53,096 nucleotides of DNA from Bacteroidales bacterium (GTDB lineage: Bacteria > Bacteroidota > Bacteroidia > Bacteroidales > P3): contig JAISIA010000032.1 of assembly GCA_031262295.1 (NCBI GenBank), positions 1-53,096 of the forward strand, read 5' to 3'. The translations under genes were made by a program, and so were the position numbers. The notes under the pieces are model-generated. The model did no database searches. It had not been told where the DNA came from and saw only the letters and a program-made list of their open reading frames with translations. This document shows positions 13,049 through 51,516 of this stretch, piece after piece. Positions within the stretch are counted from its first letter, which is position 1. The number at the start of each line of letters is the position of its first letter.

Positions 13049-14652
13049 AAAAGAATAAAAAGATAAAACTACTTCTTCTATCTGCCCTAACGGGGCTTTT
13101 ATTGGCATTTGCTTGGCCTTCTTTTGGCTTTGCACCATTGCTTTTAATTGCATTTGTTCCCCTTCTTATGGTGGAGGATCATATAACTCACTTTCAAAAA
13201 CAATATTCTCGTTTTGCTGTATTTAAATATTCCTTTTTAGCATTTTTTATTTGGAACATTATTTGCTCATATTGGATATGCTATGCAACACTATTTGGAA
13301 TTGTAGCTCCAATTTTAAATGCTTTTTTGCAGGCTTTGGTTTTCCAACTATATCATATTGCAAAGAAAAACTTATTCAACAATAGGGGAGGTTTCATTGT
13401 CCTTATCTCACTTTGGATTTCTATGGAATATATTCACTATAATTGGGAATTATCTTGGCCATGGATGAGTCTTGGAAACGGATTTGCAAAACGTCCCTTA
13501 TCAATTCAGTGGTATGAATACACAGGTGTATTTGGAGGAAGTCTTTGGGTTTGGATAACAAATTATTTTTTCTATAAGGCACTTGTAGGAAAACCTATAA
13601 GGAATAGTATATTTTTCATCCTTTCAGTTTTGCTTCCAATTGTATTTTCACTTGTAATATACAACAACTATGAAGATGAGGATAACCCTGCTTTGGATGT
13701 TGTGGTTTTGCAACCTAATTTGGAGCCATACATTGACTCTTTACAATTGTCCAACAACCAAATTACAGACCTTATAATAGATATGGCAAGAAAGAAAACG
13801 GACGATAATACAAGTTTTATCTTAGCTCCAGAAGGGTCATTGGAAGAAAATGTTTGGGAAGACCAACTTAAAGAAAATAAAAATCTTGTTAAACTAAGTC
13901 AATTTGTGGGAGAATATAAGAATGCTGTGCTAATTGCAGGACTTTTTTCAAAGAAACTACAAGATGAAACAGAAAAAGATGAGGCATCTCGCCCTGTTAA
14001 ATACGCCCCTAAGCCATACTACTCTGTATATAATAGTGCAATTAGTATAGGAGAAAATAATTCCTTTGTTTTTTATCATAAAACCAAGTTGGTGCCTGGC
14101 GTTGAGCGTTTGCCATTTAAGAAATACATTGGCTTTATATTGGATTTTGCAATAAAATTAGGAAATCTTCCTGTTGGTACATTAGCAATTGACAATAAGC
14201 AACCTTTATACTACTCCAAAGATTCCCTAACAAGGGTTGTAACACCTATTTGTTATGAGTCGGTATATGGACAATATGTGGCAAATAAGGTAAGAGAAGG
14301 AGCACAACTAATCTTCATTATAACCAACGATTCTTGGTGGAAGGATTCACAAGGACATAAACAACACGCCCTATATGCTGCATTGCGTGCTATTGAAACA
14401 AGACGTTACATTGCCCGAAGTGCAAATACGGGAACCTCTTGCTTTTTTAACGCAAAGGGAGAAATGTCCCAACAAACCAAATTCTTTACCCCAGCGGTAA
14501 TAAAATCTAAATTGGTGCCTCAAAATAGGATAACCTTCTATGTTAAATATGGAGATTACATAGCAAGAATATTTTCTTTTATGGCAATAATTGTAATAAT
14601 TGCTATGATAATGGAGAAAATATTTAGGACTATAAAAAAGAAAAATCAATAG
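13036..14652 (+). CDS. lnt: Apolipoprotein N-acyltransferase Lnt
   Basis: Lnt adds the third acyl chain to the N-terminal cysteine of lipoproteins at the inner membrane. The 538-residue protein has an N-terminal membrane domain of about six helices (10-210), a periplasmic nitrilase-like domain (about 220-490) and a last C-terminal helix (about 500-525). The catalytic triad is visible: E266 in APEGS, lysine at K349/K351 in YHKTKLVPG, and C406 in TPICYES. The start ATG lies inside the feoB end (overlap 13 bp). This start gives a normal positively charged N-terminus before the first helix. It is the last gene of the plus-strand run, followed by a 585 bp gene-free gap. Confidence 0.93.
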   Translation: MFPLKKNKKIKLLLLSALTGLLLAFAWPSFGFAPLLLIAFVPLLMVEDHITHFQKQYSRFAVFKYSFLAFFIWNIICSYWICYATLFGIVAPILNAFLQALVFQLYHIAKKNLFNNRGGFIVLISLWISMEYIHYNWELSWPWMSLGNGFAKRPLSIQWYEYTGVFGGSLWVWITNYFFYKALVGKPIRNSIFFILSVLLPIVFSLVIYNNYEDEDNPALDVVVLQPNLEPYIDSLQLSNNQITDLIIDMARKKTDDNTSFILAPEGSLEENVWEDQLKENKNLVKLSQFVGEYKNAVLIAGLFSKKLQDETEKDEASRPVKYAPKPYYSVYNSAISIGENNSFVFYHKTKLVPGVERLPFKKYIGFILDFAIKLGNLPVGTLAIDNKQPLYYSKDSLTRVVTPICYESVYGQYVANKVREGAQLIFIITNDSWWKDSQGHKQHALYAALRAIETRRYIARSANTGTSCFFNAKGEMSQQTKFFTPAVIKSKLVPQNRITFYVKYGDYIARIFSFMAIIVIIAMIMEKIFRTIKKKNQ

Positions 14653-14680
14653 GGATTTTTTAAAAAAGCATTTTTTTAGC

Positions 14681-15115
14681 ACTTGACTTTCTCAAAATAA
14701 TATTGTATCTTTGCCTAAACAAAGACCCATTAAGGGCAAATATAAATAAAAATCCCCCAAGTGCATTCTTACTCCTTTTTATTAATATAACATATTAATT
14801 ATTATGTTATTATGTTTGAATAAATCTTCGTTTTGGAAAATTATTTCTTCGTTTTAGTAAATTATTTCTTCGTTTTATGAGAATAAAACAGCGTTTTAAA
14901 AAAATATTTCTTTGTTTTCTTTTTCCAAAAATTAGGTTTTTATTTTTCAGAACGAAAAAAAGAAAAATTTAATTAAAAACATAGTGTATTATATTAAATA
15001 CTAAGTATTTAATTCTTTAAGAAAATTTTTAATTTTTCTTAAAGAGAAAATATAAATGAAATGTTAAAAAATGTTAAAATTGGGGCAATATTTCAACAAT
15101 TGTGTTAAATTTTAG
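14681..15115 (+). repeat. Dispersed promoter-bearing element, copy A
   Basis: In order: promoter TTG-N20-TATCTTTG (14683-14713); a dyad at the transcript start (TTTGCC with GGGCAAA, 14711-14741); AATAAATCTTCG and three TTCTTCGTTTT boxes (14820-14875); the palindrome TAAAACAGCGTTTTA (14884-14898); a further box (ATTTCTTTGTTTT); AAAAATTAGGTTTTTATTTTTC (14925-14946); and two AAATGTTAAA motifs at 15060-15079 with GTGTTAAA at 15102. The same order is seen in copies D (40717-41235) and E (50869-51353, minus). Copy A is more diverged and lacks the GTCGG-TTG-CCGAC hairpin. It points towards uppS. Confidence 0.7.
14683..14713 (+). promoter_or_regulatory. Promoter at the head of element copy A
   Basis: TTG (14683-14685), 20 nt, TATCTTTG (14706-14713). 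The start would be near 14720, giving an untranslated transcript of about 520 nt before uppS if it is not terminated. Confidence 0.65.
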
Positions 15116-15202
15116 TTAAAAATTTCTTTTTGCCTTTTTGCTCTTTAAAGATTTTTTTCCCTAAAAATAATATTCAAAATGTGGAATAAAGATATTTTTT
15201 AC

Positions 15203-32996: not shown

Positions 32997-33465
32997 ATAA
33001 ACTATATATAATGTATATTTGAGAACAAAAGTACTAAATTATAACCTAATAAGCATAAAGATTAAAGAAAAATAAATTTTTCCATTGTTTTTTCCTTAAA
33101 AAATTGAGATTTTATATCATTTTGCTTGCAATAAAAATACATTATTTTATTACTTTAATAAGATATTTTAACATTTTTAGATGTTTTTCTTTTTGCTTAA
33201 TAAAAAAATGAGAAGTAAAATATAGAAAATAGTTTTTCTTCGTTTTAATTTACTAAAACGAAGATTTATTTTACTAAAACGAAGAAATAATTTACTAAAA
33301 CGAAGAAATAATTTTTTAAAACAGCGTTTTATTTTACTAAAACGAAGAAATATTTTAGAAAATTATAAGTATAAATATGTAATTATAAAAACTCATACTT
33401 CCGTAAGGACAACTAAAAGTCGGTTGCCGACATTCCGTTAGGACAATTAAAAGTTGGTTGCTGAC
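32997..33465. other. Gene-free gap with TTCG box cluster (C) and tandem hairpin repeats
   Basis: No coding ORF. It holds a possible minus-strand -7 box for the TPR gene (33033-33026), AT-rich sequence with one TTTAACATTTTT motif (near 33166), the box cluster 33236-33354, and two tandem hairpin repeat units ending exactly at the stop codon of the next minus-strand gene. Confidence 0.7.
33236..33354. repeat. AAAACGAAGAAATAATTTACT box cluster (site C)
   Basis: Near-exact tandem units of about 21-22 bp containing TTTACTAAAACGAAGA occur four to five times, around the palindrome TAAAACAGCGTTTTA (33317-33331). The first unit is in the opposite orientation (TTCTTCGTTTTAA, 33237-33248), giving a head-to-head pair. 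The same boxes and palindrome occur in copies A, D and E, but here the surrounding element (promoter, dyad) is missing. Confidence 0.8.
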
Positions 33466-40581: not shown

Positions 40582-40781
40582 AAAGAGCATTAAGTAATAT
40601 CCTAAAAAAGGATAATGATATTTTGATAATTGTTCTGTTTTTACAAGTCTTAGGAAAATAATTTGAAATTATTAAATAATAATTAATAAGTACTTATATT
40701 CTTAGTCTATCATAAATAAAAAATATTTAACATTTTTTCCTTCAAATGTTAAATTCAAAATTTCAAAACTGAAATTCCCCA

Positions 40782-40813
40782 TTTGCATTTATCAAATCTT
40801 TTTTATATCTTTG
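40782..40813 (+). promoter_or_regulatory. Promoter in element copy D
   Basis: TTTG (40782-40785), 20 nt, TATCTTTG (40806-40813): a full match to the Bacteroidetes consensus. The start would be near 40820, about 640 nt before arcC. Confidence 0.75.
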
Positions 40814-41102
40814 CCCAAAACAAAGTTTCTTCTTAGGGCAATAAAGTTCTAATATTTCCAAATTTCATTTTCCTTTATATTTTCAAAATAATCATCTAAT
40901 TATTAGTATATTATCTTTTAATAAATCTTCGTTTTAGAAAATTATTTCTTCGTTTTAGTAGAATAAAACAGCGTTTTATTTAAATATTTCTTCGTTTTTT
41001 TTCTGAAAAAATAAGGTTTTGAGTTTTTTAATTAAAAATTGAGGAAAACATATTAAAATTTATTTGGATTATGTTGATAATTAATAATTTGAAAAGCTGA
41101 AA

Positions 41103-41135
41103 TTCCGTTAGGAAAAATAAAGGTCGGTTGCCGAC
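41103..41135 (+). repeat. Hairpin repeat unit in copy D
   Basis: TTCCGTTAGGA, AAAATAAAG, GTCGGTTGCCGAC: a perfect 5 bp stem with TTG loop behind the small TCC/GGA dyad. Confidence 0.8.
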
Positions 41136-41410
41136 AATTTTTGAATGAAATGTTAAAAAATGTTAAATTTTGGCGAAAAAATTTACTAAAGTGTTAAAAA
41201 AGGGGTCAAAAAAGGGGGATGAAATGTTAAAAAAATTGAATAATTTATGTTTTTGTTTAATGTAATTCAAAAGATGGTAGGTGTGCAAAGAAAGGAGGGA
41301 GGAAGGTTTCTTAGTTTTTCTTATTATTGTTAAGAATTTGAAAATAAAAGAGAATTATATGTTTTTTCTAAGAGTAAAATTTTTTTAAGCCTTTATTGGA
41401 TATATTTTTG

Positions 41411-50724: not shown

Positions 50725-50959
50725 TTTTAAACCAACACAAAATAAATATATCCCAAATCCTGCATTTTTTTTCCCTTCTCCCCAATATCAACCCTACAAA
50801 AAGCCAATTGCCACCTGATAATTCATAAAATTTTAATACCAAAACCTCAAAAAACAAAACTTATTTAACATTTCACACCCCAAAAAACACCCTATTTTTA
50901 ACACTTTAGTAAATTTTTTCGCCAAAATTTAACATTTTTTAACATTTTATTCATTTTTT

Positions 50960-50996
50960 GTCGGCAACCGACCTTTGTTTTTCCTAACGGAATTTC
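50960..50996 (-). repeat. Hairpin repeat unit in copy E
   Basis: On the minus strand: TTCCGTTAGGA, AAAACAAAG, GTCGGTTGCCGAC; perfect stem, same spacing as in copy D. Confidence 0.8.
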
Positions 50997-51257
50997 AGCT
51001 TTTCAAATTATTAATTATCAATATAATCCAAACAGACTTTAATATATTTTTCCCAATTTTTAATTAAAAAACTCAAAACCTTATTTTTTCAGAAAAAAAC
51101 GAAGAAAAATTCAAATAAAACGCTGTTTTATTTTGCTAAAACGAAGATTTATTCAAAGATAATAAACTAATAATTAATCTATTATATTGTAATCAAAAAT
51201 AAAAATAAGTATTGGGGAAATTTATATGCCTTTTGCCTTAAAAAAAACTTTGTTTGG

Positions 51258-51289
51258 CAAAGATACAAAAAAGATTTTACAAATGCAAA
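51258..51289 (-). promoter_or_regulatory. Promoter in element copy E
   Basis: On the minus strand: TTTG (51289-51286), 20 nt, TATCTTTG (51265-51258). Same spacing as copy D. The transcript would run about 550 nt to the terminator at 50691-50724. Confidence 0.75.
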
Positions 51290-51516
51290 CGGGAAATTTC
51301 AGTTTTGAAATTTTGAATTTAACATTTGAAGGAAAAAATGTTAAATATTTTTTGAAATTAAATTTTTCATATATCAAAACAATGGTATTCATCCCCTTGT
51401 CTATATGATATTATACACAAATAATTATAATTTATTTAAAGAAACAATACGGGAAAAGAGATAAATCCGCTTATTATTGGTTGTTTTGTGTAATTTCCTT
51501 TGCGGATTATCCCTAT

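What the first reader, a model, noticed from the sequence alone, without database searches (positions are those of the whole stretch)
40717..41235. A roughly 500 bp noncoding element with its own promoter occurs three times (A, D, E)
Copies at 14681-15115 (+), 40717-41235 (+) and 50869-51353 (-) share the same order: consensus promoter, dyad at the transcript start, TTATTAnTnTATTAT, TTCTTCGTTTT boxes, palindrome TAAAACAGCGTTTTA, a TTAGGTTTT/TAAGGTTTT block, and AAATGTTAAAAAATGTTAAA. None codes for a protein. Conservation of the promoter spacing (20 nt in all three) in diverged copies suggests the elements are transcribed and selected. Candidates are a family of noncoding RNAs, a common regulatory leader, or a MITE-like element that carries a promoter. 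This is the strongest unexplained signal in the window.
Basis: seen in the sequence. Interest (0 to 1): 0.7.

Follow-up and report, generated by a model that had tools for sequence, protein, structure and literature searches.

The report
Evenly spaced 21-bp DNA repeat arrays
The three look-alike stretches belong to a family of about 100 non-coding elements in this bacterium, each built round a short array of boxes exactly two DNA-helix turns apart, and in the fifth of the genome examined these arrays recur about every 10,000 bases far more evenly than chance allows, which suggests that they help to organise the chromosome.

Summary
Copies A, D and E belong to a non-coding family of about 100 copies (long form, L; about 450-520 bp): inverted box TTTAACATTT-N8-AAATGTTAAA, Bacteroidetes-type promoter, array of boxes TTTCTTCGTTTTA and TAAAACAGCGTTTTA, hairpin block, AAATGTTAAA boxes. 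The array boxes are the most conserved part. A similar number of loci carry the array without L flanks (short form, S; one at 33232-33352). Boxes keep a 21-bp register even when one is inverted. Arrays of this period, often with other box sequences, occur across low-GC relatives; the L flanks were not found there. In 430 kb of this genome L and S together form one even series (39 intervals, mean 9.7 kb, CV 0.35, none below 4.5 kb; nulls 0.49-0.85). L alone or S alone is not even, so what is spaced is the array. Orientation to neighbouring genes is random, no RNA structure is supported, no consistent target-site duplication was found. Closest known: the BrickBuilt MITE of Porphyromonas gingivalis. 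Best explanation: DNA arrays bound by an unidentified chromosome-organising protein, carried here by a MITE-like repeat with its own promoter. The function is inferred; even spacing in relatives is only partly supported.

The parts
40717..41235 (+). L-form element, copy D
   Evidence: 28 copies aligned, identity rises from ~0.5 to 0.86-0.96 at 40717 and fades between 41167 and 41237
40726..40753 (.). inverted repeat TTTAACATTT-N8-AAATGTTAAA at the 5' end of copy D
   Evidence: 106 genome sites with at most 3 mismatches, control 0; in the 100 sites listed the changes lie almost only in the 8-bp spacer
40782..40813 (+). Bacteroidetes-type promoter TTTG-N20-TATCTTTG of copy D
   Evidence: 83 genome sites of the 34-bp pattern, control 0; 20-nt spacing in 24 of 24 aligned copies that have both parts exact
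40811..40841 (+). dyad TTGCCC...GGGCAA at the predicted transcript start of copy D
   Evidence: read from the sequence; not tested separately
40921..40999 (+). 21-bp-lattice array of copy D (boxes C, C, P, C at 40926, 40947, 40968, 40989)
   Evidence: boxes at 0.99-1.00 identity among 28 copies
41105..41135 (+). hairpin block CCGTTAGGA...GTCGGTTGCCGAC in copy D
   Evidence: 138 genome sites with at most 2 mismatches, control 0; 32 of 38 sampled sites lie within 600 bp of an array
41148..41167 (+). AAATGTTAAA-AAATGTTAAA boxes in the tail of copy D; a further one at 41222-41231
   Evidence: (identity 0.97 at the first box)
14616..15133 (+). L-form element, copy A (most diverged of the three)
   Evidence: 5' profile match E=7.6e-26, 3' profile match E=1.9e-19
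14682..14713 (+). promoter of copy A, CTTG-N20-TATCTTTG
   Evidence: read from the sequence
14820..14920 (+). 21-bp-lattice array of copy A
50861..51353 (-). L-form element, copy E
   Evidence: (83% identical to D)
51258..51289 (-). promoter of copy E, TTTG-N20-TATCTTTG
51318..51345 (.). 28-bp inverted repeat of copy E
51094..51150 (-). 21-bp-lattice array of copy E (3 boxes)
50960..50990 (-). hairpin block of copy E
   Evidence: 1 mismatch
33232..33352 (.). S form (array without L flanks): six boxes in both orientations on the 21-bp lattice
   Evidence: no 5' or 3' L profile match
33401..33465 (+). two hairpin blocks beside the S-form array

Best explanation
Shown by sequence: the finding is the long form (L) of a genome-wide non-coding island whose core is an array of about 3-6 boxes on an exact 21-bp (two helical turns) lattice; a similar number of islands (S) carry the array without the L flanks; together they recur about every 10 kb in the sampled parts of this genome. 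Inferred: the array works as DNA. An unidentified protein binds the boxes, which all face the same side of the helix, and nucleates a bend, wrap or filament, so that the chromosome is divided into stretches of about 10 kb (a nucleoid-organising or domain-marking site). L is a MITE-like, species-specific amplified carrier of the array; its promoter reads inward through the array, perhaps to keep it open or to couple it to transcription.
For: Array boxes are the most conserved part of L (0.99-1.00). Box centres keep the 21-bp register when a box is inverted (start offsets 18 and 24), which points to DNA recognition rather than RNA or coding; many arrays of relatives have no open frame. Among periods 17-25 only 21 is strongly enriched in G000, G006, G034 and G013, while G010 has 21 and 22. 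Even spacing in G000: 39 intervals, mean 9.7 kb, CV 0.347, range 4.5-18.4 kb; random choice of intergenic gaps gives CV 0.85, P < 1/3000. L alone has CV 0.74 and S alone 0.56, but together 0.35, so L and S fill one series and the array is the spaced unit. With a 4.5-kb exclusion zone built into the null, the observed CV is still low (P = 3/1500), so long gaps seem to be avoided too. Predicted intrinsic bend of arrays is 73 degrees per 84 bp against 44 for other intergenic DNA. In G006, intervals below 3.5 kb are depleted (2 against 9.5 expected, P = 3/10000).
Against: No binding protein is identified. Only 430 kb (21%) of a draft assembly was examined, with simple ORF calls. Even spacing is not significant by CV in G006 (P = 0.09) or G013 (P = 0.07), and could not be tested in G010. 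Relatives carry arrays of several unrelated unit sequences in one genome, which is awkward for one sequence-specific protein.
Confidence: 0.42

Rival explanations
1. L is an ordinary MITE-like selfish repeat with an internal minisatellite and promoter (BrickBuilt-like), and S are older remnants. The array is the binding site of the mobilising enzyme, and even spacing comes from a target-immunity-like repulsion or from loss of closely spaced repeats by recombination.
For: About 100 dispersed copies, inverted TTTAACATT boxes at both ends, non-coding, lineage-specific. BrickBuilt has the same leader-array-tail plan and array-only loci (PMC4596501). G013 also shows repeated copies of its own array-bearing sequence.
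Against: No consistent target-site duplication in 33 distinct copies; no autonomous partner was looked for. A 4.5-kb exclusion alone leaves more variation than seen (P = 3/1500), although a softer long-range repulsion would fit. Relatives have arrays but no L.
Confidence: 0.33
2. L encodes a family of small non-coding RNAs of about 300 nt made from the conserved promoter.
For: Promoter pattern in 83 copies (65 exact), spacing 20 nt.
Against: No structure beyond weak hairpins and no covariation; no Rfam match; the most conserved part, the array, also occurs without the promoter and with boxes in both orientations. Transcription itself was not testable.
Confidence: 0.12
3. Common regulatory leader or mobile promoter for the downstream gene.
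For: A, D and E each lie upstream of a gene on their own strand.
Against: Across 19 L copies the downstream gene is on the same strand in 10 and on the opposite strand in 9; 15 of 19 sit at gene-direction switches.
Confidence: 0.05
4. Extragenic terminator or insulator islands between transcription units.
For: Intergenic, hairpin blocks next to arrays, L enriched at strand switches (odds ratio 4.4, P = 0.011).
Against: S is not enriched at switches; a need for terminators does not predict a rhythm of about 10 kb.
Confidence: 0.08

Closest known systems
BrickBuilt MITE of Porphyromonas gingivalis (PMC4596501)
   Same: Bacteroidales; always intergenic; leader + spacer-less tandem array + tail; some loci array only; inverted-repeat ends; promoter activity; non-coding
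   Different: 23-nt unit against 21; end sequence GAGACCTTTGCA against TTTAACATT; 19 copies against about 100; arrays here occur in other species of the family, keep a 21-bp lattice with inverted units and are evenly spaced. No such spacing is described in the sections of the paper that were read
BIME/REP mosaics of enterobacteria (from general knowledge, not looked up)
   Same: extragenic mosaic islands of short palindromic motifs; proposed binding sites of architectural proteins and gyrase
   Different: other motifs; not arranged on a 21-bp lattice and not known to be evenly spaced
parS, matS, Noc- or SlmA-type chromosome sites (from general knowledge, not looked up)
   Same: many dispersed sites read by one protein that organises the chromosome; a model for how this may work
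   Different: single short sites, mostly confined to chromosome regions, not helix-phased arrays about every 10 kb; no reader protein is known here

Membership tests
MITE | terminal inverted repeats | tested here: inconclusive
   TTTAACATT core at both ends of most aligned copies, longer match in some (e.g. L002), outer part degenerate; weak in copy A
MITE | target-site duplication | tested here: not met
   no consistent duplicated k-mer at any boundary offset in 33 distinct copies
MITE | short, non-coding, dispersed in many copies | tested here: met
MITE | autonomous transposon with the same ends | not tested
   no transposase search linked to these ends was run
BrickBuilt | 23-nt repeat unit | tested here: not met
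   unit is 21 bp
BrickBuilt | leader and tail flanking the array, array-only loci | tested here: met
   24 L and 22 S loci in the sample
BrickBuilt | ends GAGACCTTTGCA / TGCAAAGGTCTC | tested here: not met
   ends are TTTAACATT / AATGTTAAA
Structured non-coding RNA family | conserved secondary structure with covariation | tested here: not met
   no Rfam match
Regulatory leader | fixed orientation to the downstream gene | tested here: not met
   10 same, 9 opposite
Chromosome-organising site | cognate DNA-binding protein | not testable with these tools
   needs pull-down or ChIP
Chromosome-organising site | non-random genome-wide placement | tested here: met
   strong in the G000 sample; partial in G006, weak in G013

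The most novel reading that the evidence does not exclude
A Bacteroidales family marks its chromosome about every 10 kb with helix-phased (21-bp) DNA arrays that a dedicated protein reads to set topological or nucleoid domains, and species-specific mobile repeats such as L serve as carriers that fill positions in that rhythm.
Probability: 0.3. Interest if true: 0.88.

Novelty: new variant of a known kind. Interest (0 to 1): 0.64.

Why it matters
Dispersed intergenic repeats of bacteria are usually taken for neutral or selfish, and topological domain borders of about 10 kb in bacterial chromosomes are generally thought to have no fixed sequence (general knowledge). An even series of helix-phased arrays, filled interchangeably by two forms of element, would be a sequence mark for such domains and would make domain setting testable: fish out the binding protein, map it, and move or remove arrays. 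It would also show a mobile-type repeat put to structural use.

Tried and rejected
Coding heptad repeats (21 bp = 7 codons): some arrays of relatives read as LES...K heptads and one lies in a gene (G006a 150218), but many have no open frame, and the G000 arrays change orientation on the lattice. Palindromy as a general property of the units: not above shuffled units in G000 and G034, barely in G006, slight in G010, so only the TAAAACAGCGTTTTA box is clearly palindromic. Curvature as the conserved property: true for the G000 and G006 units but not for two other unit types. Presence on mobile DNA: two exact array patterns absent from 2.9 million viral contigs, copy D absent from plasmids. Positional conservation: of 9 genus relatives with uppS, 3 show a 21-22-bp array near it, and none of 9 shows one in the fetched flanks of arcC, so positions turn over; too few shared gene pairs for a statistical test. 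Literature searches for evenly spaced 21-bp arrays found nothing relevant in the open-access library. A first pattern for the hairpin block was mis-spaced and was replaced.

Full report
WHAT IS THERE. Copies A, D and E were read and aligned. They share, in order: inverted box TTTAACATTT-N8-AAATGTTAAA (D and E), a Bacteroidetes-type promoter TTTG-N20-TATCTTTG (A: CTTG), a dyad at the predicted start, an AT-rich block, an array, a TAAGGTTTT block, a hairpin block CCGTTAGGAAAAATAAAGGTCGGTTGCCGAC (D, E), and AAATGTTAAA boxes. None overlaps a convincing gene, and Rfam finds nothing but a tRNA in the window.

COPY NUMBER. The window lies in a 2.04-Mb, 89-contig, 31% GC Bacteroidales genome. BLAST of copy D scored only 40 of 399 candidate places; besides D itself, 39 places matched at 78-93% identity over 296 bases or more. 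Pattern counts give about 100 copies: 83 promoter sites of the 34-bp pattern (65 exact) and 106 inverted-repeat sites, reversed controls 0. The 5' half has no comparable match in 60 relatives (only short stretches of up to about 50 bases match), and its profile finds nothing significant in loci of other taxa. The repeats coincide with many contig ends.

CONSERVATION. In 28 aligned copies, identity outside the element is about 0.45, jumps at 40717 and fades between 41167 and 41237. Within it the array boxes reach 0.99-1.00, the end boxes 0.96-0.97, the promoter 0.79-0.89, and the rest about 0.5-0.9. In the 100 inverted-repeat sites listed, changes fall almost only in the 8-bp spacer.

THE ARRAY. 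Boxes TCTTCGTTTT and ACAGCGTTTT follow each other at 21 bp. Where a neighbour is inverted the start offset becomes 18 or 24, which is what keeps the centres 21 bp apart. This argues for recognition of double-stranded DNA from one face of the helix. In 430 kb (window plus six contig stretches) there are 46 array loci, 24 with L flanks and 22 without. The hairpin block has 138 sites in the genome, and 32 of 38 sampled sites lie within 600 bp of an array, at both L and S loci.

SPACING. The 46 loci give 39 intervals with mean 9.7 kb, CV 0.347, range 4.5-18.4 kb. Choosing the same number of intergenic gaps at random gives CV 0.85 and about 15 intervals below 4.5 kb, and none of 3000 draws is as even; the result holds for gaps of at least 200 bp, for nulls with 1.5- and 3-kb exclusion, and for draws matched to gene orientation. 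Loci closer than 1.5 kb were merged first (two pairs about 400 bp apart). L alone (CV 0.74) and S alone (0.56) are not even, while LL, LS and SS neighbours all are (0.32, 0.37, 0.31). So L and S are interchangeable members of one series. A 4.5-kb exclusion zone in the null lowers its CV only to 0.49, still above the observed value (3 of 1500 draws reach it).

RELATIVES. Box sequences differ between and even within genomes, e.g. TTAGAATCAAGTTCTAATAAA, TAAAACAAAGAAATAATTTTC, GTCGCAGGTTCAAAAAGTTTT. In 20-kb samples the GC-rich family members and the order-level outgroups showed no 21-bp arrays, but the sample is small. Even spacing: G006 is depleted of short intervals (2 against 9.5, P = 3/10000) but its CV is 0.69 (P = 0.09); G013 has CV 0.64 (P = 0.07). 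Missed arrays lengthen gaps in these genomes, so this is partial support only.

WHAT IT IS NOT. Not a leader: orientation to the downstream gene is 10 same, 9 opposite. Not a structured RNA by this evidence. Not generally palindromic, not generally coding, not seen in the viral or plasmid collections.

MECHANISM. The DNA-level, array-centred reading follows from the lattice, the conservation and the interchangeability of L and S. That a protein reads the arrays and organises stretches of about 10 kb is inference. The main rival is a MITE-like selfish repeat (BrickBuilt-like, PMC4596501) with repulsion between copies; it explains L well, and S and the avoidance of long gaps less well.

LIMITS. 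One fifth of a draft genome, simple ORF calls, curvature parameters from memory, array detection tuned per genome, thresholds for merging and depletion chosen after seeing the data.

Noticed in passing
window 33401-33465, 41105-41135, 50960-50990; 138 genome sites: 31-bp hairpin block CCGTTAGGA...GTCGGTTGCCGAC, sometimes in tandem, sits next to most arrays and is a second dispersed repeat in its own right.
   Followed up: partly
L179 (G021) 2136, 8918, 12370: Three intergenic arrays within 18.7 kb with three unrelated unit sequences, all of period 21 (one with about 11 units).
   Followed up: no
L217-L236 (G010): Arrays with many different units, including TTATCCACCG units that resemble DnaA boxes, and periods of both 21 and 22.
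   Followed up: no
L162 (G006 contig C5 near 150218): A 21-bp array with the same kind of units lies inside an open frame of 368 codons, read as LES-type heptads.
   Followed up: partly
G013 contig C39 near 1300, 31571, 55669, 164917: Repeated copies of an array-bearing sequence (TCAAATTGGTTTTTCTTTGTGAAAATCT...), possibly this species' own counterpart of the L form.
   Followed up: no
G000 C11:247/440, C14:228/421, C70:15081/15337: Doubled 5' ends of the L form about 200-250 bp apart, as if partial tandem duplicates.
   Followed up: no
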